Assembly (NCBI GenBank): GCA_017412245.1
Contig: JAFPYI010000033.1
Span: 94,456 to 158,455, forward strand
Source of the DNA: Paludibacteraceae bacterium
GTDB lineage: Bacteria; Bacteroidota; Bacteroidia; Bacteroidales; Paludibacteraceae
Length of the DNA: 64,000 bases
Reading direction: 5' to 3'
Each line of letters starts with the position of its first letter. The first letter of the stretch is position 1. This document shows, in pieces, positions 873 through 61,091 of the stretch. The position numbers and the translations under genes were made by a program. The notes beneath the pieces are model-generated. The model was given only the letters and a program-made list of their open reading frames with translations. It was not told the origin of the DNA and searched no databases.

Positions 873-973
873 GTCAACCAGGAAACCTCTCGGAAGCCTT
901 GAAAATACGGGCCTGCAACGGGGTAACATTGGGTGATTATTGCGTGATTATTGTGTGATTATTGCGTGATTCG
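873..973 (+). repeat. 101-bp element made of degenerate 11-bp units, copy 1
   Basis: From 877 the sequence divides into eight 11-bp units and a partial one. The last two bases of successive units, at 886, 897, 908, 919, 930, 941, 952 and 963, run CC, CC, CG, CG, TG, TG, TG, TG. The final units are nearly identical (CGTGATTATTG, TGTGATTATTG). A second copy at 60276-60376 matches at 96 of 101 positions with the same end points. It lies between the spmAB stop codon (975-977) and ybeY. No coding potential is apparent. Confidence 0.85.
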
Positions 974-974
974 C

Positions 975-2207
975 TTATCCGAAGAATATCGGCGCGATGG
1001 CAAAGGCCGCAATAGCGCCTGCTAAATCAGCCAAAAGACAACAAGCAACTGCGTGTCGTGTGTTCTTGATATTTACCGAACCGAAATAGACTGCTAAGAC
1101 ATAAAATGTTGTGTCTGTCGTTCCTTGCAGGATACAACACAATCGTCCTACAAGACTATCTGCGCCATGAGTGGTCATAGCTTCGAGCATCAGTCCTCTT
1201 GCGCCGCTACCACTAAGCGGTTTCATAAGTGCTGTAGGAACTGCTCCTGCGAGATCTGGATTAATACCACAAGCACCAAAACACCATGCAATACCTTGTT
1301 CCAGCAAATCCATTGCTCCGCAAGCACGGAACATACCTACGGCAACTAAAATGGCGATGAGGTAAGGAATAATACCGATAGCCACTTGGAAACCTCCTTT
1401 GGCGCCGTCTATAAATGCATCATAGACGTTGATTTTCTTGCACATCGCCTGAATGACGAACCAGCAGATAACACCTAAAAGAAGTATGGCTGCAATAGCT
1501 GCAGATACAACTGATAATGCGTGTGGAGAGAGAAGAGTAGCACCCCAAACCATCAAACCGACTAATGCGGTTAAACCGATGATGGTTCCTAATACAACAG
1601 GGTCTTTTAACTTGATTTTTTGCGCCACGCACACACAAAGAAGTCCAACAAGTGTAGCAACATAAGTAGCAATCAAAATCGGCAGGAAAACATCTGCAGG
1701 ATTGGCGGCTCCTAATTGTGCGCGGTAGGCCATGATAGTTGTCGGAATCAGTGTCAGTCCGCTTGCACCGAGTACAACGAACATAATCATGGCATTGGAC
1801 GCTTTGGATTTGTCGGTGTTGAGTTCTTGCAACTCTCCCATTGCTTTCAATCCCATCGGCGTTGCGGCATTATCCAAACCAAGCATATTGGCCGCAATAT
1901 TCATGAGCATGGTTCCGAAAACAGGATGACCTTTAGGAATATCCGGGAAGATACGGCTGAAGAACGGATTGATGGCTTTTCCAAGCGAATTTACTGCTCC
2001 GGCTTTCTCGCCGATCTTCATAATACCCATCCATAATGCAAGAACACCCGTCAAACCAAGTGAGAGTTCAAAACCTGTCTTGGCACTATCGAAGGTCGAA
2101 TTTAGTATATCGGAAAATATATTGATATTACCAAAACACAGAGCTTGAATAAGCCCCATGATAACTGCTAAAAGAATAAGCGAAATCCAAATATAATTCA
2201 AAATCAT
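975..2207 (-). CDS. SpmA/SpmB fusion, nucleoside-recognition (Gate) domain membrane protein
   Basis: 410 residues, many hydrophobic segments. The N-terminal half resembles SpmA (LSLGLTGVLALWMGIMKIGE; ANMLGLDNAATPMGLKAM near residues 110-128) and the C-terminal half resembles SpmB, with a second Gate-type domain (FQVAIGIIPYLIAILVAVGM; PLSGSGARGLM). Spore formers encode the halves as two genes; the fusion is usual in non-sporulating Bacteroidota, where its role is unknown. It is an inner-membrane protein, possibly a transporter; the substrate cannot be told from sequence. The ATG at 2205-2207 lies about 5 bp past the -7 element at 2212-2219, so the mRNA is probably leaderless. Confidence 0.88.
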   Translation of the reverse strand: MILNYIWISLILLAVIMGLIQALCFGNINIFSDILNSTFDSAKTGFELSLGLTGVLALWMGIMKIGEKAGAVNSLGKAINPFFSRIFPDIPKGHPVFGTMLMNIAANMLGLDNAATPMGLKAMGELQELNTDKSKASNAMIMFVVLGASGLTLIPTTIMAYRAQLGAANPADVFLPILIATYVATLVGLLCVCVAQKIKLKDPVVLGTIIGLTALVGLMVWGATLLSPHALSVVSAAIAAILLLGVICWFVIQAMCKKINVYDAFIDGAKGGFQVAIGIIPYLIAILVAVGMFRACGAMDLLEQGIAWCFGACGINPDLAGAVPTALMKPLSGSGARGLMLEAMTTHGADSLVGRLCCILQGTTDTTFYVLAVYFGSVNIKNTRHAVACCLLADLAGAIAAFAIAPIFFG

Positions 2208-18407: not shown

Positions 18408-18473
18408 CGAAGCAGACACGTAAATGGTTCGTAATCGGTTCGAAATCGACTCGATAATGACCCGTTCACTCTT
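18408..18473 (+). repeat. Six-unit 11-bp array, CG-phased
   Basis: CG dinucleotides occur at 18408, 18419, 18430, 18441, 18452 and 18463, each exactly 11 bp apart. Units include CGTAAATGGTT and CGTAATCGGTT. Located in the 232-bp space between convergent dtd and nrnA; this array and the one at 18507 account for most of it. Confidence 0.85.
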
Positions 18474-18506
18474 TGATAAAAAAAGTTGGAGTGAAGAGAA
18501 TTTGAG

Positions 18507-18561
18507 AGTACCTTTAAACCACCTTAAGAATACCTTAAAACCACGTTAAAACCACGTTCAA
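18507..18561 (+). repeat. Five-unit 11-bp array, ACC-phased
   Basis: ACC or ACG at 18510, 18521, 18532, 18543 and 18554 at exact 11-bp steps, with TTAA in the other half of each unit (for example ACCACGTTAAA). Distinct from but next to the CG-phased array at 18408. Confidence 0.82.
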
Positions 18562-26098: not shown

Positions 26099-26114
26099 GA
26101 TAAGCAGCAAAATA

Positions 26115-26169
26115 ACCTACTTATCACCTACTTATCACCTACTTATCACCTACTAATCACCTACTCAAA
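26115..26169 (+). repeat. Five-unit 11-bp array between kduI and kduD
   Basis: ACC at 26115, 26126, 26137, 26148 and 26159, exact 11-bp steps. Three units are identical (ACCTACTTATC), one differs by a single base, and the last diverges after six bases. It fills most of the 86-bp gap between two genes of one pathway. Confidence 0.9.
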
Positions 26170-31140: not shown

Positions 31141-32477
31141 AAAAGATATTTTTAATACTATTAACTTTTTGTTCCCTATTGCCCCTTTATTCCGAGGAAG
31201 TAACTACTGATACTTTGACAACCGACACACTGGATGTGGAGTCGTTGGAATTGGTACCTCTGCAAGTGGCCGACAGTCTCTTGGAACCTTTATCTCTCGA
31301 AGTTGGTTCGAGATTGCCTCGAAGTTGGTTCGATACCGCCTCGATAACAGATATAGAGTACCGTACCTTGGATTGGTCTCTTCGTTGGTTGGATACCACA
31401 GATTGTGTGTCTGTACATGATACAACTACTTTGCCGGACTCCGTATATAAGGCTCGTTTACAGGCACTCCCGTGTGTTATTGAGTTGCCGTACAACGAGC
31501 GTGTGAGAGGATTTATTCTTCGCTACGTCAAACGCAGTCCTAAACAAGTGGCTCGTTTGATGCGAATGAGTGAGTATTATTTCCCGATTTTCGAAGATGC
31601 ATTGGGACGTTATCAGTTGCCGTATGAATTAAAATATGTTCCTATTATCGAGTCGGCACTCAATCCAATGGCTCGTTCTCATGCCGGAGCTGCCGGATTA
31701 TGGCAGTTTATGCCGGCCACAGGCAAACTTTTTGGTCTGGAGATAAACTCATTGGTGGATGAGCGTATGGACGTGGTTAAATCTACGGAAGCGGCTTGTC
31801 GATTCTTGAGTAATATGTATTCGATTTATCAAGATTGGAATTTAGTGATAGCTGCTTATAACTGCGGTAGCGGAAATGTGAATAAGGCCATTCGCCGTGC
31901 CGGAGGGAAACGCGATTTCTGGTCAATTTATCCATATCTGCCCACCGAAACACGAAATTATGTGCCTATTTTCATTGCTGCGAATTATGCCATGAATTAT
32001 GGTGCAGAACATGGTATATGCAAGGCTCCGGTGGAGAAAACAATGTTGACGGATACTATTTGTACTACGCAACGACTTCATTTGGAGCAGGTGAGTGCCA
32101 ATTTGGGAATAGATATGGAAGAGTTGCGTAGATTAAATCCGCAATATTCAAGAGATATTTTGCCGGGTGGGAATGCTTATACACTTTGTCTGCCTGCAGA
32201 AAAAACCGGACTATTTATTGAACAGCAAGATAGTATCATGGCTTATAAAGCCGATAGCCTGATTAATAACCGCCGTGCAGAAATTGACATGGCTAAAATC
32301 ACATCAATTACAGGCGGTTATCGTGTGAATGGAGTGACTTATTATACGATAAAGAACGGCGATACATTGGGTGGAATTGCAAAGAAATTTCATTGCACAG
32401 TAAAACAACTTAAGCAATGGAATGGCTTGAAAAACGATAATATTCGTGCAGGTAAGAAACTTAAGATTTGCAAATAA
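31137..32477 (+). CDS. mltD: MltD-like lytic murein transglycosylase with LysM domain
   Basis: 446 residues from a TTG at 31137 that overlaps the previous stop as TTGA. Signal peptide ends near PLYSEE. The transglycosylase domain (about 150-290) has the catalytic Glu in IIESALNPMARSHAGAAGLWQF and the AYNCGSGNVNKAI motif. A degenerate LysM lies near 310-350 and a clear one at the C-terminus (YTIKNGDTLGGIAKKF). It cuts the glycan strands of peptidoglycan. A linker at residues 54-72 is encoded by an 11-bp array (31298-31352) and looks unconserved. The stop overlaps the merR start (TAATG). Confidence 0.9.
   Translation: MKKIFLILLTFCSLLPLYSEEVTTDTLTTDTLDVESLELVPLQVADSLLEPLSLEVGSRLPRSWFDTASITDIEYRTLDWSLRWLDTTDCVSVHDTTTLPDSVYKARLQALPCVIELPYNERVRGFILRYVKRSPKQVARLMRMSEYYFPIFEDALGRYQLPYELKYVPIIESALNPMARSHAGAAGLWQFMPATGKLFGLEINSLVDERMDVVKSTEAACRFLSNMYSIYQDWNLVIAAYNCGSGNVNKAIRRAGGKRDFWSIYPYLPTETRNYVPIFIAANYAMNYGAEHGICKAPVEKTMLTDTICTTQRLHLEQVSANLGIDMEELRRLNPQYSRDILPGGNAYTLCLPAEKTGLFIEQQDSIMAYKADSLINNRRAEIDMAKITSITGGYRVNGVTYYTIKNGDTLGGIAKKFHCTVKQLKQWNGLKNDNIRAGKKLKICK
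31298..31352 (+). repeat. Five-unit 11-bp array inside the mltD-like coding sequence
   Basis: CG at 31298, 31309, 31320, 31331 and 31342, exact 11-bp steps. The unit CGAAGTTGGTT occurs at 31298 and again at 31320, giving a 22-bp higher order. Because 11 is not a multiple of 3, each unit is read in another frame. The product lies in the linker between signal peptide and catalytic domain. Confidence 0.82.
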
Positions 32478-40620: not shown

Positions 40621-40702
40621 CGTATCAGATTCGTAAATGGCTCGTAAATGGTTCGAGATAACCCCGTTCCGATAGTCTCTCGCATCTGTCTCGCTAGTCT
40701 GA
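40621..40702 (+). repeat. Eight-unit 11-bp array with one phase shift
   Basis: CG at 40621, 40632, 40643, 40654 and 40665, all 11 bp apart; after a 5-bp slip again at 40670, 40681 and 40692. It shares units with the array at 18408 (CGTAAATGGTT in both). Located between the KdsC-like and IspD-like genes, filling most of the 109-bp gap. Confidence 0.85.
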
Positions 40703-43057: not shown

Positions 43058-43087
43058 ATGTCGAAAGTGAAAGACAAAATCCGTTGA
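43058..43087 (+). CDS. Possible nine-codon leader peptide in front of sprA
   Basis: ATG at 43058 opens MSKVKDKIR and stops at TGA 43085-43087, which overlaps the sprA TTG (43084-43086) as TTGA. The same overlap joins parB to the DUF5683 gene and that gene to mltD. The peptide is too short to judge by itself; the support is the exact overlap. Translation would bring ribosomes to the weak sprA start. Confidence 0.35.
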   Translation: MSKVKDKIR

Positions 43088-46000
43088 AAAGATATATTGC
43101 ATACATATTGATATTGTTATGGTTGCCAATGGTAACCATGTCTGTGTACGCACAGTCTTCCAAACCCAAGACATTGAAAGAACTTATCGCAGAGGAGAAG
43201 GCACAGAAAGAAGCTGAGAAAGCAGCGAAAGAGGAGAAAAAAGAGCGTTCCGCTCAAACACAAAAAGCGGCGGATAACCAAAATACAGATGCGCAAACTC
43301 CAGAAGAGGCGGCGGATTACGTAACAGAGACGGATAGTGCTATCTGGGCTCCCACACGAGTGAAACAATTAGGTGCGCAAAACTACGGAGAATTGACGCA
43401 ACCGAACTCTTCTTTAGACTTGCGAGATCCAAGTAACGTAGTTACAAGTATTGAGTATCAGCCTGAGACGGGTACATATGTCATTCGTACCAAAATCGGT
43501 GATACCGATGTAACCACTCCGTATATGCTGACGCAAGATGAATATAATCAGTATGCGGAACGACAGATAATGCACCAATACTGGCAGCAGAAAATCAGCG
43601 AAGTGGAGCATAATAATGAAAAGAAGTTTGACATCACAGATATGAAATTTAATATCGGTCCGGCTGATAAAGTGTTTGGTCCCGGTGGTGTTCAACTCAA
43701 GATGCAAGGAAGTGCGGAATTATTGTTTGGCTTTAAGCATCAATACATTGCCAATCCGTCACTCACCGTACGCGCGCGAAACAACAATATTTTTGATTTT
43801 GATGAGAAGATACAGGCGAGCATACAAGGTAAAGTGGGTCAAAAATTAAACTTCAATTTGTCGTACAATACAGAGGCCAGTTTCTCGTTTGACCAACAAA
43901 ATCTAAAATTGAATTACAAGGGCGAAGAGGATGATATCATCCAAAGCATTGAAGCCGGAAATGTGACAATGGACTTACCCAGTTCACTTATTCGTGGAAG
44001 TAAGGCTTTGTTCGGTATCAAGACGAATCTGAAGTTCGGCAAACTGAAGATACAAGCATTAATCAGCCAACAAAATAGTGAGGCTCAGACGGTTAGCAGT
44101 CAAGGCGGAGCGCAGTTGACGCGTTTTGATATTTCCGGAGATGCGTATGACGAAAACCGACATTTCTTCCTTAGTCATTTCTTTCGTGACCATTTTGAAG
44201 AATCAATGGCAACTGTGCCCTATATTGCCAGTGGAGTTACTATCAACAAGATAGAAGTATGGATAACGAATAAACGTGCCAATTATGAACAAGCGCGCAA
44301 CTTGGTTGCTTTTGCCGATTTAGGAGAGAATAGCGACCACATCCAGTTGTCTTCATGGACGAGTGCACCTAATCTGCCGCCGGATAATAAGACAAACACT
44401 TTGTACGAGACCGTTCGTGAAACAGCATTCCGTGATATAGACCAGACAAGCACTGTGTTGGAAGGCTTAAATGGCATGGAAGGCGGTTTGGATTTTGAGA
44501 AGATAGAGTCGGCACGATTGCTGTCAAGCAGTGAATATACATTAAATAGCGCACTCGGATTTATTACTTTGAAATCGGCGCTTAATCAAGATGAAGTGCT
44601 GGCAGTCGCGTACGAATATACCTACAACGGACAAGTATTCCAAGTGGGTGAGTTTTCCACCGACGGTAGTGAGGAATTGCGAACGCCGAATGCCTTGGCA
44701 TTGAAGATGTTGAAGTCGAGTGCCAACTCTCCGACAGTCAAAGGACGCGGTACTTGGGATTTGATGATGAAAAATATCTATTCGTTGGGCGCAACCAGTA
44801 TCAATCAAGATAAATTTGAACTATATGTAACCTACCGTAATGATTCCGTCGGCACGGATGTGCAATATTTGAATGAAGGTCCGATAAGCGGTAAACAGTT
44901 GATTCGCGTAATGAATCTTGACCGTTTGGACCAAAAACACAATGCAAGCCCGGATGGTAAATTCGACTTTATTGAAGGCTTGACAGTATATGCAAGTAGC
45001 GGAAGAATTATCTTCCCGGTCTTGGAACCGTTCGGTAGTCATTTAGCAAATAGTTTAGGCAACGATCCTCAATTGGTAAGTAAATATTGTTTCCCGGAAT
45101 TGTATGATAGTACGTTGATTGTAGCCCAAGAATTGAGTGAGAAAAATAAATTCCACTTAACCGGTAAATACAAAGGAACTAACGGTAGCGAAATCCGTTT
45201 AGGTGCTATGAATGTACCTCGTGGAAGTGTGACGGTTACTGCAGGTGGTGCAACGCTGATTGAGAATGTGGATTATACCGTTGATTATACCATGGGAACG
45301 GTAACGATTCTCAATACCTCTATTCTTGAGAGCGGAACAAATGTGGATGTTAAGTTGGAGAACCAAAGCACGTTCTCGATGCAACGCAAATCACTTTTTG
45401 GTGCCCATCTGGAGTATGAGTTTACGAAAGACTTAGTGTTAGGCGGAACAATTATGCATCTCCGTGAGCGTCCGTTGACAACGAAAGTGAATACGGGATC
45501 CGAACCTTTGGCAAACACTATTTGGGGTGTTAACGGTAGCTGGAAGACGGAAATGCAATGGTTGACTAACGCTATTGATAAGATTCCATGGATTACAGCA
45601 ACTGCTCCTTCTACATTCCAAATCAGTGCAGAATTCGCACATTTAATTCCAGGTCACACACGTGATGTGGGTGCGTTGGGCACGGCTTATATAGATGATT
45701 TTGAGAGTACGACAACCAATATTGATGTGCATTATCCGAGTTATTGGTTCTTGGCTTCAACTCCTTCGGTGATGGATGAATCGAAGGATGTAAATCAACC
45801 GAGTTATAATAAGAACAGAGCTTTGTTGTCATGGTATTCCGTTGACCCGATATTCGGTTATCCTCAGACCAATACGCCTGCGCATATCAAGAATGACTTA
45901 ACGGCATTGAGCGACCATAGAACACGTATCGTTTATCAGGATGAGATTTATCCTAATCGCGAGGAAGCAAGCAATGTCGATACTAAATTGCCGATTCTCA

Positions 46001-49000
46001 ACCTCTCGTTCTATCCGGAGGAACGTGGTCAGTATAATATCTCGGCGGGAGAAGTAGGAGCCGATGGCCGTTTGACCAATCCAAAGAAACGTTGGGGTGG
46101 TATGATGAGACGATTGGATAATACTGATTTTGAGAAAGCCAATATTGAGTATATTGAGTTCTGGATGATGGATCCTGCATTGACCAACCCCGATGGTTAT
46201 GACGGCGAGATGTATATCAACTTAGGTGATATAAGCGAGGATATATTACGTGATGGCAAAAAAGCTTTTGAGCATGGTCTGCCCATCTCTGAAGCCGATC
46301 GCGGACGTGTGGACAGTACAGTATGGGGATATGTGCCACGTACTACCAGCACGGTTGTAGCCTTCAGTAATGAGGCCGGAGCACGTGTGCGGCAAGATGT
46401 GGGTCTAAACGGATTGAATAGTGAGCAAGAAAAATTATGGCCGGCTTATAGTACCTATTTGTCGGAATTGGAAAGTAAGGTAAGCGCAGATGTGTGGAAT
46501 GCGTGGGCTAATGATCGTTTCTCGCCTCGTAATGACCCTGCAGGCGATAATTTCCATTATTACCGAGGATCGGATTTCGATAGTGAAGAAGTGTCTATTT
46601 TAGGTCGTTATAAACATTTCAATGGTACTGAAGGAAACTCGCCGGAAACAGACCAGCAGACGGAAAGTTATGGAACGGCTTCAACGCTAACCCCTGATGT
46701 GGAGGATATAAACCTAGACAATACACTTAATGAGTACGAGAAATACTACCAATACAAGGTTATCCTTCGTCCGGATATGATGGAAGTCGGACGACAAAAC
46801 ATCACGGAGAAAAAGATTCGAAAAGTAACGCTTCGTAATGGTGAGACACAAGATGTGGCATGGTATCAGTTCAAGATACCTCTTCGTGGCGATAGTGCCA
46901 GTGTGCAAAAAATAGGTTCGATACGCAATTGGAAATCGATCCGTTTCATGCGTGTTTACCTGACCGGTTTTGAGCATGAGACCCATCTTCGCTTGGCTAC
47001 ATTGGATTTGGTTCGTGGTGAATGGCGTCAATATACTCGCGATTTAGCACCTGTCGGTGTGGCTGTTAATGCCGGTGCATCGATGAACGTGCAAACGGTG
47101 AATATTGAAGAAAACTCAACCCGTACTCCTGTTAACTATGTATTACCTCCGGGTGTAAGTCGTCAAACAGATCCTGGTCAAGCGCAACTGATAGCTCAAA
47201 ATGAGCAAGCGATGGTAATGAGAGTAGTTAACTTAAGTCCACGTGATGCAAGAGCAATGTATAAGAATACGGGTTATGATATGCGGCAATACAAGAATCT
47301 GCAGATGTTTGTTCATGCCGAACAAATGAGTTCTATCGACCCTGAATTGAAAGACGGAGACTTAAGCTGCTTTATTCGTATTGGTTCAGACTTGCGGAAT
47401 AACTACTACGAATACGAGATACCATTGCATCTAACTGAGCCAGGACAGTACAACAACAATTCCGAAGCAGACCGTTTGAAAGTTTGGCCGGATGTGAATA
47501 TGTTTGATTTCCCGCTCGAAGTACTCACAAAAGCCAAGCTGGCACGTAATAAAGCCAAACGTGCAGGTAATGAGGGAGTAAGCAATACAATCCCGTATGT
47601 CATCTACGATGACGAATCCGGCAAACCGCAGAACAAGATTACAGTACTTGGTAATCCGACATTAGAGGATGTAGAGACTATCATGATAGGTGTGCGTAAC
47701 AGCGGTCAACATGAGGCATCGGGTGAGATTTGGGTAAATGAATTACGCCTAAGTCAATTCAATGAAAAAGGTGGTGTGGCTGCAATGGCTAATGCAGCTT
47801 TGGCTATCAGTGATATTGCTCAGGTGAATGTGGCAGGACGAATGGAGACAGCCGGTTATGGTTCAATTGAATCGAATGTGCTGGACCGAAACATCGATAA
47901 TTTCTATCAGTTGTCTGTCAGTGCGGCATTAGAGGCAGGACGTCTGTTCCCGGAGAAAGCTAAAATTCAAATGCCGTTGTATGTATCGTATAGTAATGAG
48001 ACAATATCACCGGATTATGACCCGTTGGACACGGATGTGAAACTATCAGAATCCTTAGACACGTACGAGACGAAAGAAGAACGTGATTCTATCAAACGAA
48101 TGTCCAATACAGTACGTGAGTCAACGTCGTTCTCCATGACGAATATGAAAGTCAATATCCACTCCAAGAAGCGTGATATGTTCTATGATCCGGCTAACTT
48201 TACGCTCTCTACATCGTATAACAAGCAGTCTGAACGTTCGCCTGAGATGGAGACAAATTATACGACCGACCATAAAGGTTCGTTCCAATATGCATATAAT
48301 TTCAATCCTAAACCGTGGTTGCCGTTTGATAAAGTAAAATCTGTGCAGAAAGTAAAAATATTGAAGGAATTCAATTTGTATTATTTGCCGCAGTCTTGGG
48401 CCTTTAGTATGAACATGCATCGTACCTTCAGTCATATGAAGATGCGGGATTTGGCAGGCGCTTCTGTCAATGCTATGGATTTAACCTATAGCAAAGACTT
48501 CACATGGGATCGTAATGTGGATATCAAATATGATTTGACCAAGAACATGAAGTTCTCGTTCCAATCTGCCTTTAATGCCATTATTGACGAAGGAAAATAT
48601 ACTCCGGAGATTTTGAACGGACGTTATTTTGACGAGCAGTTCAACCACGATAAGTATGAGGCATGGCGTGATACTATTCAACGTTCGTTAGCACGATTTG
48701 GTTCTCCATATACCTACCAGCAAGTCTTTACTGCCAGTTGGAATGTGCCGTTTAATCGTGTTCCGTATTTGGATGCATTGAGCGCTAATGCTTCGTATAA
48801 TGCTACTTATAACTGGAATCGCACCGCGTCAACTACATCGGGACAGAATCTCGGTAATACGGTTAGCAGTCTGCAGTCCTGGCAGGTAGACGGAAGTATT
48901 AACTTCGAAACGTGGTACAATAAATCGAAATACTGGAAACAGATGACGCAGCGTTATTCCGGTAGAAACAGCAAACGGAATTTCAAACCGAAGACTTACA

Positions 49001-50655
49001 CACAAACGGTTTCGTTGAAACGCGGCGAAGCTGTAGAAATAACTCACCGATTGAATAGTGAATTGCTTGTTGTCACGGCTACCGATGCAAATGGCAAAAC
49101 AGTTCCTCTCAGTTTTGTTCCTGCTGGTAATACAAAAGCCAAAGTGACATCTAAGACAGATTGCGAACAGGCTACAATCACTATTACTACTCGTGATCCG
49201 GACCAGCGAACGCCTGCACAAATAGCGGGTGATATGTTTGCATATGTGGGAACCATGTTCCGTAGATTACAGGTAACATATCGTGAGACGAATTCAATGA
49301 CTATTCCTGGCTTTGAACCGGAAGCTGGATTCATGGGACAACGAAAGGTAAATGGAATGTACGCTCCGGGATATGATTTCGCTTTCGGTTTCATTCCTAA
49401 TAATATGATTGACCGCGCGAAAGAGCATGGATGGTTATCCGGTGATACTACTGTTGTTCAACCGGCCACGCGTGCTCATACCAGCGATTTCGATATTAAG
49501 TTAACTCTTGAACCGTTACCGGGACTGAAAATACAATTGAATGGTAAACGCTATTACGCGCACTCGTCGTCTATCATCTATAGTTATGACCATCTGCAGG
49601 AGACGATGACGGGTTCGTTTAATATCACGCAAGTTGCTATTGGAACAATGTTCAGTCGTGTGGGCAAACAAGAGGAGAACTTCGCTAACTCTACTTACGA
49701 TCAGTTCAAAGCAAATCGTGAGATTCTAACTGATCGTGTACAGGACCAATACACCGGAATTACGCTGCCTACAACAGGATTCATGAGTAATATACCGGAA
49801 GGTACTATTTACAATCCTGCTAAACACGGACGAGTAAGCAGTAATTCTGCGGATGTATTAGTGCCTGCATTCTTGTCTGCTTATACAGGACGTGATGCCA
49901 CCAAAATGGATATGAATCCGTTCTTAGGTATATTACGTATCCTGCCTAACTGGTCGGTTACCTACGATGGACTCGGTAAATTGCCTTGGATGCGTGATCA
50001 TTTCAAGTCGGTAACACTGACGCACGCATATACCTGTAAATATGCCATTGGTTCGTTTGGCAGTTATTCTACTTGGGTAGGTGCCAATGGTGCGAATAAG
50101 CAAATAGGTTTTGTGCGCGATGTTACTACTGATTCTCCTATGCCATCGTCCGCATATGACATCAGCAACGTAACTTTGACTGAGGCTTTTGCTCCGTTGA
50201 TCGGATTGAATATGACGATGAAGAACTCTCTCAGTTTCAAGGCAGAGTACCGTAAGCAACGCAACTTGGCATTGAATGTGACGAGTGTGCAATTGACGGA
50301 GGGCCATACAAACGAATTTGTTTTAGGAGCAGGATATACCATCAAGAATCTCAATTTTATTACCAAGAAGAAAGATGGTGGCCAAAAGAAGGTAAGCAAC
50401 GATCTTAAACTGCAGGTAGATGTGTCCTATAAGGATGTGAAGATGCTATTGCGAAAGATAGAAGAAGATATTACCCAAGCATCGAGTGGTAATAAAGTGT
50501 TTGCTATCAAGATTTCGGCAGATTATGTGCTGAGTCAGAAGATCAATCTCCAACTCTTCTACGACCATCAAGGAACCACTCCGCTCATCAGCAGTTCCTA
50601 TCCGGTTAAGGCGGATAACGTAGGTTTGAATATTAAATTGATGCTCACGAGATAA
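43084..50655 (+). CDS. sprA: SprA/Sov, giant T9SS outer-membrane translocon
   Basis: 2523 residues, as expected for the largest T9SS protein, a 36-strand barrel through which substrates cross the outer membrane. The TTG at 43084 gives a good signal peptide (YILILLWLPMVTMSVYAQ); no ATG fits. A Lys/Glu/Ala-rich segment follows (about 40-65). SprA features: FNIGPADKVFGPGGVQLKMQ, ISGDAYDENRHFFLSHFFRD, LGTAYIDDFESTTTNIDVHY, ALLSWYSVDPIF and IWVNELRLSQFNEKGG. The C-terminal part consists of barrel strands (NLQLFYDHQGTTPLIS near the end). Downstream of ruvA and followed one base later by the NadR-like gene. Confidence 0.96.
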   Translation: MKRYIAYILILLWLPMVTMSVYAQSSKPKTLKELIAEEKAQKEAEKAAKEEKKERSAQTQKAADNQNTDAQTPEEAADYVTETDSAIWAPTRVKQLGAQNYGELTQPNSSLDLRDPSNVVTSIEYQPETGTYVIRTKIGDTDVTTPYMLTQDEYNQYAERQIMHQYWQQKISEVEHNNEKKFDITDMKFNIGPADKVFGPGGVQLKMQGSAELLFGFKHQYIANPSLTVRARNNNIFDFDEKIQASIQGKVGQKLNFNLSYNTEASFSFDQQNLKLNYKGEEDDIIQSIEAGNVTMDLPSSLIRGSKALFGIKTNLKFGKLKIQALISQQNSEAQTVSSQGGAQLTRFDISGDAYDENRHFFLSHFFRDHFEESMATVPYIASGVTINKIEVWITNKRANYEQARNLVAFADLGENSDHIQLSSWTSAPNLPPDNKTNTLYETVRETAFRDIDQTSTVLEGLNGMEGGLDFEKIESARLLSSSEYTLNSALGFITLKSALNQDEVLAVAYEYTYNGQVFQVGEFSTDGSEELRTPNALALKMLKSSANSPTVKGRGTWDLMMKNIYSLGATSINQDKFELYVTYRNDSVGTDVQYLNEGPISGKQLIRVMNLDRLDQKHNASPDGKFDFIEGLTVYASSGRIIFPVLEPFGSHLANSLGNDPQLVSKYCFPELYDSTLIVAQELSEKNKFHLTGKYKGTNGSEIRLGAMNVPRGSVTVTAGGATLIENVDYTVDYTMGTVTILNTSILESGTNVDVKLENQSTFSMQRKSLFGAHLEYEFTKDLVLGGTIMHLRERPLTTKVNTGSEPLANTIWGVNGSWKTEMQWLTNAIDKIPWITATAPSTFQISAEFAHLIPGHTRDVGALGTAYIDDFESTTTNIDVHYPSYWFLASTPSVMDESKDVNQPSYNKNRALLSWYSVDPIFGYPQTNTPAHIKNDLTALSDHRTRIVYQDEIYPNREEASNVDTKLPILNLSFYPEERGQYNISAGEVGADGRLTNPKKRWGGMMRRLDNTDFEKANIEYIEFWMMDPALTNPDGYDGEMYINLGDISEDILRDGKKAFEHGLPISEADRGRVDSTVWGYVPRTTSTVVAFSNEAGARVRQDVGLNGLNSEQEKLWPAYSTYLSELESKVSADVWNAWANDRFSPRNDPAGDNFHYYRGSDFDSEEVSILGRYKHFNGTEGNSPETDQQTESYGTASTLTPDVEDINLDNTLNEYEKYYQYKVILRPDMMEVGRQNITEKKIRKVTLRNGETQDVAWYQFKIPLRGDSASVQKIGSIRNWKSIRFMRVYLTGFEHETHLRLATLDLVRGEWRQYTRDLAPVGVAVNAGASMNVQTVNIEENSTRTPVNYVLPPGVSRQTDPGQAQLIAQNEQAMVMRVVNLSPRDARAMYKNTGYDMRQYKNLQMFVHAEQMSSIDPELKDGDLSCFIRIGSDLRNNYYEYEIPLHLTEPGQYNNNSEADRLKVWPDVNMFDFPLEVLTKAKLARNKAKRAGNEGVSNTIPYVIYDDESGKPQNKITVLGNPTLEDVETIMIGVRNSGQHEASGEIWVNELRLSQFNEKGGVAAMANAALAISDIAQVNVAGRMETAGYGSIESNVLDRNIDNFYQLSVSAALEAGRLFPEKAKIQMPLYVSYSNETISPDYDPLDTDVKLSESLDTYETKEERDSIKRMSNTVRESTSFSMTNMKVNIHSKKRDMFYDPANFTLSTSYNKQSERSPEMETNYTTDHKGSFQYAYNFNPKPWLPFDKVKSVQKVKILKEFNLYYLPQSWAFSMNMHRTFSHMKMRDLAGASVNAMDLTYSKDFTWDRNVDIKYDLTKNMKFSFQSAFNAIIDEGKYTPEILNGRYFDEQFNHDKYEAWRDTIQRSLARFGSPYTYQQVFTASWNVPFNRVPYLDALSANASYNATYNWNRTASTTSGQNLGNTVSSLQSWQVDGSINFETWYNKSKYWKQMTQRYSGRNSKRNFKPKTYTQTVSLKRGEAVEITHRLNSELLVVTATDANGKTVPLSFVPAGNTKAKVTSKTDCEQATITITTRDPDQRTPAQIAGDMFAYVGTMFRRLQVTYRETNSMTIPGFEPEAGFMGQRKVNGMYAPGYDFAFGFIPNNMIDRAKEHGWLSGDTTVVQPATRAHTSDFDIKLTLEPLPGLKIQLNGKRYYAHSSSIIYSYDHLQETMTGSFNITQVAIGTMFSRVGKQEENFANSTYDQFKANREILTDRVQDQYTGITLPTTGFMSNIPEGTIYNPAKHGRVSSNSADVLVPAFLSAYTGRDATKMDMNPFLGILRILPNWSVTYDGLGKLPWMRDHFKSVTLTHAYTCKYAIGSFGSYSTWVGANGANKQIGFVRDVTTDSPMPSSAYDISNVTLTEAFAPLIGLNMTMKNSLSFKAEYRKQRNLALNVTSVQLTEGHTNEFVLGAGYTIKNLNFITKKKDGGQKKVSNDLKLQVDVSYKDVKMLLRKIEEDITQASSGNKVFAIKISADYVLSQKINLQLFYDHQGTTPLISSSYPVKADNVGLNIKLMLTR

Positions 50656-60275: not shown

Positions 60276-60376
60276 GTCAACCAGGAAACCTTTCGGAAAC
60301 CTTGAAAATACGTACTTGCAACGGGGTAACATTGGGTGATTATTGCGTGATTATTGTGTGATTATTGCGTGATTCG
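60276..60376 (+). repeat. 101-bp element made of degenerate 11-bp units, copy 2
   Basis: Matches the element at 873-973 at 96 of 101 positions with identical end points; the five differences all lie in the first 41 bases. The phased dinucleotides fall at 60289, 60300, 60311, 60322, 60333, 60344, 60355 and 60366. Located between the cargo terminator and the tetR promoter, in a 293-bp space that holds no gene. Confidence 0.87.
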
Positions 60377-60491: not shown

Positions 60492-61091
60492 ATGGCAGAA
60501 GACCAGAAATGTAATATCATTAAGACGGCAGGCGAGATGTTCTTTCGCTTGGGAATTCGTAGTGTCTCGATAGATGATATCTGTCACGAATTAGGCATGT
60601 CTAAAAAGACTTTCTACGTCTATTTTGAGTCGAAAGATGCATTGGTGGCACAACTCTTGCATGCCAATGTAGAGTATATCTCCCAGAAGATGGAGGATTT
60701 AGCTAAACTGCAAGATTTCAGGCAGTTAGTCTCTAAATTTCTCAAACATCAGGAGGCGGAGAAAAACGATGTGCGCCGTGTGCCGCAATTGGTTTATGAC
60801 CTCAAGAAATATTATCCGCGCCAGTTTGCCGATTTTCAGCATGAATGTTTCCAGACGCAGAAAAAATATATCAAGCGTTATCTGGAGCAGGGACGTGAAG
60901 AAGGTTACGTGCGCGCGAACCTTAATATAGAATTAACGGCAACCCTTTTTGCGAAGATTCATAGCGATGCCATCCGTGATTTTGAACTCATTGAAGCTCA
61001 CGGACATAATATGCATCAGTTAGGACATACGGCCATGGAGATTTTTGTGCGTGGTGTCCTGAGCGAAAAAGGAATGGAGTTGTATAAATGA
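60492..61091 (+). CDS. TetR-family repressor of the efflux operon
   Basis: 199 residues. Helix-turn-helix VSIDDICHELGMSKKTFYVYFESKDALVAQ at 25-54. The C-terminal ligand domain is divergent, as usual. It is the first gene of an operon with TolC, adaptor and RND genes, so it most likely represses its own operon until a ligand binds. The ligand cannot be inferred. Confidence 0.92.
   Translation: MAEDQKCNIIKTAGEMFFRLGIRSVSIDDICHELGMSKKTFYVYFESKDALVAQLLHANVEYISQKMEDLAKLQDFRQLVSKFLKHQEAEKNDVRRVPQLVYDLKKYYPRQFADFQHECFQTQKKYIKRYLEQGREEGYVRANLNIELTATLFAKIHSDAIRDFELIEAHGHNMHQLGHTAMEIFVRGVLSEKGMELYK

What the first reader, a model, noticed from the sequence alone, without database searches (positions are those of the whole stretch)
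18408..18561. A family of degenerate arrays with exact 11-bp period across the window
At least seven arrays occur: 873, 18408, 18507, 26115, 31298, 40621 and 60276. Each has 5-9 units in strict 11-bp phase. Unit sequence varies from array to array, but a strong dinucleotide (CC, CG or TG) recurs at one position and the rest is AT-rich. They are too short-period for CRISPR, have no spacers, and five of seven lie in small gaps inside or beside operons. The phase (about one helical turn) would give bent DNA or a row of equal protein contacts. I know of no named element like this.
Basis: partly seen in the sequence, partly recalled or inferred. Interest (0 to 1): 0.8.

Follow-up and report, generated by a model that had tools for sequence, protein, structure and literature searches.

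The report
Dispersed gap repeats with 11-base period
A group of gut bacteria carries many short DNA blocks made of 11-base repeats, scattered almost only between genes, gained and lost between close relatives; they look like small spreading repeats rather than gene switches, and what spreads them is unknown.

Summary
Sampled intergenic DNA of this genome (an uncultured Bacteroidales MAG; nearest named relatives include Paludibacteraceae of ruminants) holds 30, 23 or 21 period-11 segments at three thresholds; shuffles gave 0-1, lags 10, 12 and 13 gave 0-2. Period 7 is the other strong short period. The seven arrays fall into four kinds: F1 (873, 60276; 12 copies in the genome), F2 (26115; 8 copies), F3 (18408; 14 copies; 31298 and 40621 are F3-like) and an AAACCACG-type array (18507). 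One (31298) lies inside the mltD-like coding frame. Of 77 arrays in 1.36 Mb of sampled DNA, 2 lay mostly inside called genes. No consistent strand relative to genes, no RNA-fold signal, and no curvature beyond that of any 11-bp repeat was found. Arrays come and go: F1 at 60276 is absent at that site in two near relatives; the kduI-kduD gap is 4 bp in 5 of 20 genomes and holds unlike 11-bp arrays in three. Unit phases vary unequally (F3: C2, G3, G9 fixed in 56 of 56 units), suggesting that something reads each unit. Best reading: mobile intergenic minisatellites, akin to BrickBuilt of Porphyromonas. No mover or reader protein was found.

The parts
873..973 (+). F1 element, copy 1: nine 11-bp rows, last four near-identical (ATTGCGTGATT); ends 1 base from the stop codon of the gene at 975-2207 (-)
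60276..60376 (+). F1 element, copy 2, between a terminator-like hairpin and a promoter-like stretch (both by eye) upstream of the gene at 60492; absent at the same site in G046 and G105
18418..18469 (+). F3 element: ACGTAAATGGT TCGTAATCGGT TCGAAATCGAC TCGATAATGAC, then tail CCGTTCAC; in the convergent gap after dtd
18510..18561 (+). array of AAACCACG type (ACCTTAAAACC/ACGTTAAAACC), in the same convergent gap
26112..26165 (+). F2 array (ATCACCTACTT x 5) between kduI and the kduD-like gene; that gap is 4 bp (stop codon included) in 5 of 20 genomes with the two genes adjacent
31296..31344 (+). F3-like array preceded by TTATCTC, inside the mltD-like coding frame (variable N-terminal linker)
40631..40662 (+). 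short F3-like array (TCGTAAATGGC TCGTAAATGGT TCGAGATAACC) between the KdsC-family gene and the ispD-like gene

Best explanation
The arrays are short (about 50-100 bp), non-coding, dispersed intergenic minisatellite elements. The genomes looked at most closely hold several families; a family is a block of about 3-9 degenerate 11-bp units, in some families with short fixed leader or tail sequence. Blocks appear at new gene junctions or are lost there (shown by filled and empty sites in relatives; the direction is inferred); units within a block are gained, lost and made alike by slippage or unequal recombination (inferred from whole-unit length differences and array-wide identity of the variable block). 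They persist because they sit between genes, mostly without breaking reading frames (shown: 75 of 77 outside called genes). How a block moves is inferred only: copying in trans by an unidentified enzyme that may read the 11-bp units, or recombination between blocks.
For: Dispersal: F1 has 12 copies at 91-100% identity plus one 31-bp fragment in a genome estimated 62% complete, with a fixed left end and, in most copies, a fixed right end; F2 8 copies; F3 14 copies, the 13 others 76-86% identical to the window copy. F1-like matches in 22 of 61 genomes of the genus. Gain and loss: at window 60276 the orthologous gaps of G105 and G046 keep the upstream gene end and the promoter-like stretch but lack F1; at kduI-kduD 5 of 20 genomes have a 4-bp gap, three have 11-bp arrays of different sequence (own, G091, G135), 8 of the other 12 have period-7 runs, one a weak lag-11 run and three neither. 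Location: 2 of 77 arrays lie more than half inside called genes although genes cover 89-94% of bases. Unit-number change: F1 copies L011 and L012 lack two and one units. Homogenisation: in 75 adjacent unit pairs of the ATMACC superfamily the variable block is the same in 73, against 0.56 expected from the pool. Lineage-specific variants: all 10 G013 stretches, chosen at F1-like hits, hold ATTGGGTGATT arrays; G000 F2 reads ATCACCTACTT; G135 at kduI-kduD reads AATCACCCCCT.
Against: No consistent target-site duplication was seen by eye in 12 F1 copies, and matching inverted ends occur in only 4 of 14 F3 copies, one with a mismatch. No autonomous partner was found; of transposases only the Y1 (REP-type) family was searched: no hit in G013, G033, G011 and G006, which hold such arrays (90, 97, 98 and 84% complete), but hits in 3 of the 7 genomes searched, 2 above the cut-off. 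The phase-specific conservation suggests more than neutral repeats. The F3-like array in mltD is inside a gene. Most kduI-kduD gaps of middle length are period-7, not period-11, so filling of gaps is not special to period 11.
Confidence: 0.6

Rival explanations
1. The arrays are binding platforms: a sequence-specific protein sits on every 11-bp unit, one helical turn apart, head to tail, as OmpR/PhoB-family regulators or ParR/omega partition proteins do, and the rows organise the chromosome or control genes.
For: Phase-specific conservation in F3 (14 of 14 copies, no unit requirement: C2, G3, G9 in 56 of 56 units, T1 and A6 in 54 of 56; on 13 copies gave chi-square p 3e-10) and in F1 (10 of 12 copies, p 7e-6); the spaced pattern TCGNNANNG three times at 11-bp steps in 64 of 178 genus genomes, against 24 matches in 13 genomes for the pattern read backwards, and 36 against 0 in G000; motif shared across 46 non-redundant arrays (log-likelihood 124 against 108 +/- 2.3, maximum 115, for 30 column-permuted sets). 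ArcA sites are direct repeats 11 bp apart, three to five of them in 92 of 158 (PMC3798270, passages).
Against: No strand or gap-type preference clear enough for an operator: C-rich strand sense 17: other 26 (ties counted with the 26), or 17: 17 without G033. Absent from the orthologous gap in near relatives. Units next to matched F3 blocks, not selected for, keep C2 in 0.73 and G3 in 0.53-0.60, but A6 in only 0.47-0.50 and G9 in 0.27-0.50. In G033 phase bias is not significant (p 0.06). A few ancestral unit variants reshuffled by recombination could mimic the phase pattern. No candidate protein was searched for.
Confidence: 0.22
2. Purely local slippage arrays (like STRR/LSSR simple repeats) that arise independently at each junction and merely converge on the period.
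For: Period-7 arrays are as common and often fill the kduI-kduD gap from the stop codon on; long simple-sequence repeats of 5-11 nt are known, heptamers most common (as told in PMC4679880, passages).
Against: Near-identical copies with conserved left rows at unrelated loci (F1) cannot arise independently.
Confidence: 0.1
3. RNA-level element: Rho-loading site (regular YC spacing) or structured RNA.
For: C-rich, G-poor strand in some families (F2); spacing like that recalled for rut sites.
Against: No consistent sense orientation; in G033 0 of 9 C-sense. RNA folds of 12 stretches: z from -1.67 (F3, + strand) to +0.66.
Confidence: 0.04

Closest known systems
BrickBuilt MITE of Porphyromonas gingivalis (PMC4596501; section 5 and passages seen)
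   Same: Bacteroidales; dispersed, intergenic, degenerate tandem repeats with leader and tail segments, copies with or without them, filled and empty sites between strains, no own transposase
   Different: 23-nt unit (not 11), 84-991 bp; 12-bp terminal inverted repeats like those of IS elements. Here: 11-bp unit, about 50-100 bp, several families per genome, inverted ends only in part of F3
Short tandemly repeated repeats / long simple-sequence repeats (e.g. TAACTGA repeats, PMC4679880; passages seen)
   Same: intergenic short-period arrays, several units, patchy distribution; period-7 arrays lie in the same genomes
   Different: 11-bp units, degenerate, with near-identical dispersed blocks; 7-mer and 11-mer motifs were not significantly alike
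OmpR/PhoB-family sites such as ArcA boxes (PMC3798270; passages seen)
   Same: direct repeats at 11-bp centre-to-centre, 3-5 of them in most sites
   Different: no promoter association seen here; many families; no regulator identified
Partition iterons: parC bound by ParR; pSM19035 parS heptads WATCACW (PMC5016525, PMC9499535; passages seen)
   Same: tandem short iterons bound head to tail (10-bp repeats in the passage, 11 bp for plasmid R1 recalled; 7 bp for pSM19035)
   Different: plasmid centromeres beside their own genes; here dozens of loci in a chromosome-like assembly; par genes were not searched for

Membership tests
MITE (BrickBuilt-like) | dispersed, multi-copy, non-coding, intergenic | tested here: met
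   (one window array, 31298, is inside a gene)
MITE (BrickBuilt-like) | terminal inverted repeats | tested here: inconclusive
   GAACGGGT/ACCCGTTC in 4 of 14 F3 copies, one with a mismatch; none seen by eye in F1
MITE (BrickBuilt-like) | target-site duplications | tested here: not met
   12 F1 copies inspected by eye, no consistent duplication
MITE (BrickBuilt-like) | autonomous element with the same ends | not tested
   only Y1 transposase was searched
MITE (BrickBuilt-like) | filled and empty sites between relatives | tested here: met
REP/RAYT system | Y1 (TnpA-REP) transposase in the genome | tested here: not met
   no hit in G013, G033, G011, G006; hits in G003 and G027 over and in G007 and G000 under the cut-off
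CRISPR array | repeats of 21 bp or more (recalled) with unique spacers | tested here: not met
   units directly adjacent, 11 bp
Intrinsically curved DNA element | more curvature than the same period with other unit order | tested here: not met
   8.7 against 8.6 degrees per turn (recalled parameters)
OmpR/PhoB-type operator | 11-bp direct repeats placed at promoters of regulated genes | tested here: inconclusive
   repeats met; no clear gap-type or strand preference
Structured RNA family | match to Rfam or fold better than shuffles | tested here: not met
   Rfam at gathering scores: two tRNAs only; folds z -1.67 to +0.66

The most novel reading that the evidence does not exclude
Many families of mobile intergenic blocks converge on the same 11-bp step because a conserved DNA-binding protein of this group assembles head to tail on them, one subunit per helical turn, reading a few fixed positions (for F3, TCG..A..G). 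The blocks would then be a spreading, chromosome-wide set of landing rows, used for their own movement or for chromosome organisation.
Probability: 0.2. Interest if true: 0.75.

Novelty: new variant of a known kind. Interest (0 to 1): 0.55.

Why it matters
Together with period-7 arrays they make up some of the longer gaps between genes that are otherwise tightly packed (the kduI-kduD gap is 4 bp in 5 of 20 genomes and 84-220 bp in the three with an 11-bp array), so they help decide how spacer DNA arises in these gut bacteria. The preference for periods 7 and 11, with phase-specific conservation, is unexplained and asks for a reader protein or a copying enzyme. No description of 11-bp arrays in these bacteria turned up in the listings of four searches (open-licence papers only).

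Tried and rejected
Bent DNA as the selected property: no excess over column-permuted arrays with three twist settings. Rho rut sites: no consistent strand. RNA structure: Rfam at gathering scores found only two tRNAs in the window; folds no better than z -1.67. REP/RAYT: no Y1 transposase in four array-bearing genomes, though three of seven had a hit. A shared core between period-7 and period-11 arrays looked plausible by eye but failed: correlation 0.63, reached by 15% of permuted motifs. Plasmid collection: no match to F1. dtd downstream gap as an empty-site test: the dtd-nrnA neighbourhood was not found within the fetched flanks of any of the 29 orthologous loci, so uninformative. misread loci on the minus strand; one search replaces it. 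One search required one TCG..A..G unit near the tail and dropped L158; one search repeats it on 14 of 14 copies without that requirement (one off-target tail on the other strand of L160 left out). One search used the unit itself as the search string; the unbiased scan is. Two paper searches returned no paper and one nothing on this subject.

Full report
What it is in. The window lies in an unnamed 1.42 Mb MAG of 41 contigs, estimated 62% complete. The six closest KduD-like sequences in named records (94-97% identity) are MAGs labelled Paludibacteraceae or Bacteroidales; four of the six titles name a ruminant. Gene names here follow NCBIfam matches: dtd and kduI pass the curated cut-off; the gene called kduD passes as gluconate 5-dehydrogenase and not as KduD; the nrnA-, mltD- and ispD-like genes match below the cut-off.

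The observation. Tandem-repeat finding, lag scans and repeat search confirm 11-bp arrays at all seven places, with continuous runs of 2.3 to 5.9 units. In 34,884 intergenic bases of the G000 sample, lag-11 segments number 30, 23 and 21 at three thresholds; 20 dinucleotide shuffles per threshold give a mean of at most 0.1; lags 10, 12 and 13 give 0-2; lag 7 gives 27, 26 and 22, lag 22 gives 23, 21 and 14, lag 8 gives 5, 4 and 4. At threshold 18 the counts are 17 in 464 kb for G000 and 7 in 178 kb for nine loci of nearest relatives, against 5 in 1.18 Mb of 71 other loci, mostly other Bacteroidales.

Families. F1: window 873-973 and 60276-60376, plus ten further copies and one 31-bp fragment; 91-100% identical, written as nine rows of 11 bp, the last four nearly alike. 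Two copies lack two or one units (L011, L012). The window copy at 873 ends one base from a stop codon; other copies look close to stop codons by eye. F2: window 26112-26165, 8 copies. F3: window 18418-18469, 14 copies; right end CCGTTCAC or near it; left end GAACGGGTT in 3 copies and with one mismatch in a fourth. The arrays at 31296-31344 and 40631-40662 are F3-like and by eye; one search did not list them. A further array of AAACCACG type is at 18510-18561. Other families were seen elsewhere in G000, such as CCTACGGTAAT at two loci. F1-like matches occur in 22 of 61 genomes of the genus.

Place. G013 and G033 stretches in that count were chosen around hits. The C-rich strand is sense in 17 tandem cases and not in 26 (ties among the 26); 9 of the 26 come from G033, where it is 0 to 9. 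The window array at 31298, below that threshold, is inside the mltD-like gene: the frame is open and aligns to seven relatives, where the same linker has another sequence.

Gain and loss. At window 60276 the two relatives nearest by KduD (98%), G105 and G046, have the end of the upstream gene, a hairpin that looks like a terminator and the conserved promoter-like stretch, without F1. At kduI-kduD, 20 of 30 fetched genomes have the two genes side by side; 5 have a 4-bp gap counting the stop codon; three have 11-bp arrays with different units (own ATCACCTACTT, G091 TATGGTCTAGC, G135 AATCACCCCCT with period-7 arrays beside it); of the other 12, eight have period-7 runs, one (L288) a weak lag-11 run and three neither. 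Named loci show the same, partly from the same genomes; L073 and L074 add an AATAACTAACG array. The dtd gap was uninformative because gene order is not kept.

Constraint within the unit. In 14 F3 copies, four units each, C2, G3 and G9 are fixed in 56 of 56, T1 and A6 in 54 of 56, and phases 4, 5, 7, 8, 10 and 11 vary (on 13 copies with a partial selection for the pattern, gave chi-square p 3e-10). The copies were found by similarity, which itself favours conserved positions. F1 variation is also phase-specific (10 copies, p 7e-6); in G033 it is not significant (p 0.06). The pattern TCGNNANNG three times at 11-bp steps occurs in 64 of 178 genus genomes; overlapping matches number 36 in G000 and 52 in G041 with no control match; over all genomes the reversed control gave 24 matches in 13 genomes. 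In a family sample it occurs in 19 of 200 genomes, of which 5 of 165 lie outside the genus. Units next to 30 matched blocks, not selected for, keep C2 in 0.73 and 0.73, G3 in 0.53 and 0.60, T1 in 0.50 and 0.57, A6 in 0.47 and 0.50, G9 in 0.50 and 0.27: support for CG, weak for A6 and G9. Few ancestral variants reshuffled by recombination could imitate the pattern. A second superfamily, ATMACC plus a variable block, occurs in 77 of 178 genomes; its reversed control also matches in a number of genomes (G013 48 against 55), probably because such arrays partly read alike backwards, so that count is an upper bound; in G000 it is 17 against 0. In 75 adjacent unit pairs from 30 loci the block is the same in 73, expected 0.56 from the pool, while the A/C position differs in 42 of 75. 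Across 46 non-redundant arrays a weak common motif fits better than column-permuted arrays (124 against 108 +/- 2.3, maximum 115).

Mechanism. Shown: dispersal, intergenic bias, filled and empty sites, whole-unit length change, array-wide homogeneity. Inferred: spread as blocks, homogenisation by slippage or recombination. Not shown: the enzyme or any binding protein. Y1 transposase had no hit in four array-bearing genomes. Curvature, RNA folding and strand tests do not support bent DNA, RNA or termination readings.

Comparison. BrickBuilt of P. gingivalis (one section and passages seen) is the nearest in kind. TAACTGA repeats (passages) resemble the period-7 arrays. ArcA boxes (passages) and partition iterons (passages) show that proteins do assemble on 11-bp, 10-bp or 7-bp steps. 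Membership of the MITE class is not claimed, since target duplications were not seen and inverted ends are partial; 'works like' a non-autonomous dispersed minisatellite is.

Noticed in passing
G000 stretches L018-L037 and window: Period-7 arrays (TTAGTGG, TTTTATC, CAAATTT types) are about as common as period-11 arrays in gaps and in several genomes start at the kduI stop codon.
   Followed up: partly
L115 860-966, 7541-7647, 18342-18445; L101 11006-11078; L119 7444-7577; L130 5535-5631: Prevotella-type MAG loci hold 22-bp period arrays in which, by eye, a palindrome of about 15 bp with matching changes on both halves alternates with a variable spacer of about 7 bp.
   Followed up: no
L097 14252-14418: Two 11-bp arrays in inverted orientation, able to form a long hairpin, in a MAG labelled Mediterranea.
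   Followed up: no
L179-L187 (G033): Several copies of the G033 family share a flank like AGCCAACGAAAAGCAGAGGAAAGCC and some have a second array of CTAG-type units beyond it: composite elements.
   Followed up: no
G191 (another genus of the family), e.g. G191:C8:7016-7068: Nearly exact TCGTTAATGTA arrays at many loci, 20 overlapping pattern matches.
   Followed up: no
L001-L006 right flanks: Some F1 copies (L002, L003, L004 and, more weakly, L006) share further sequence beyond the right end (CACTCTGTCC), so the full element may be longer.
   Followed up: no
window 43084-50655: An open frame of 2523 aa, not examined.
   Followed up: no
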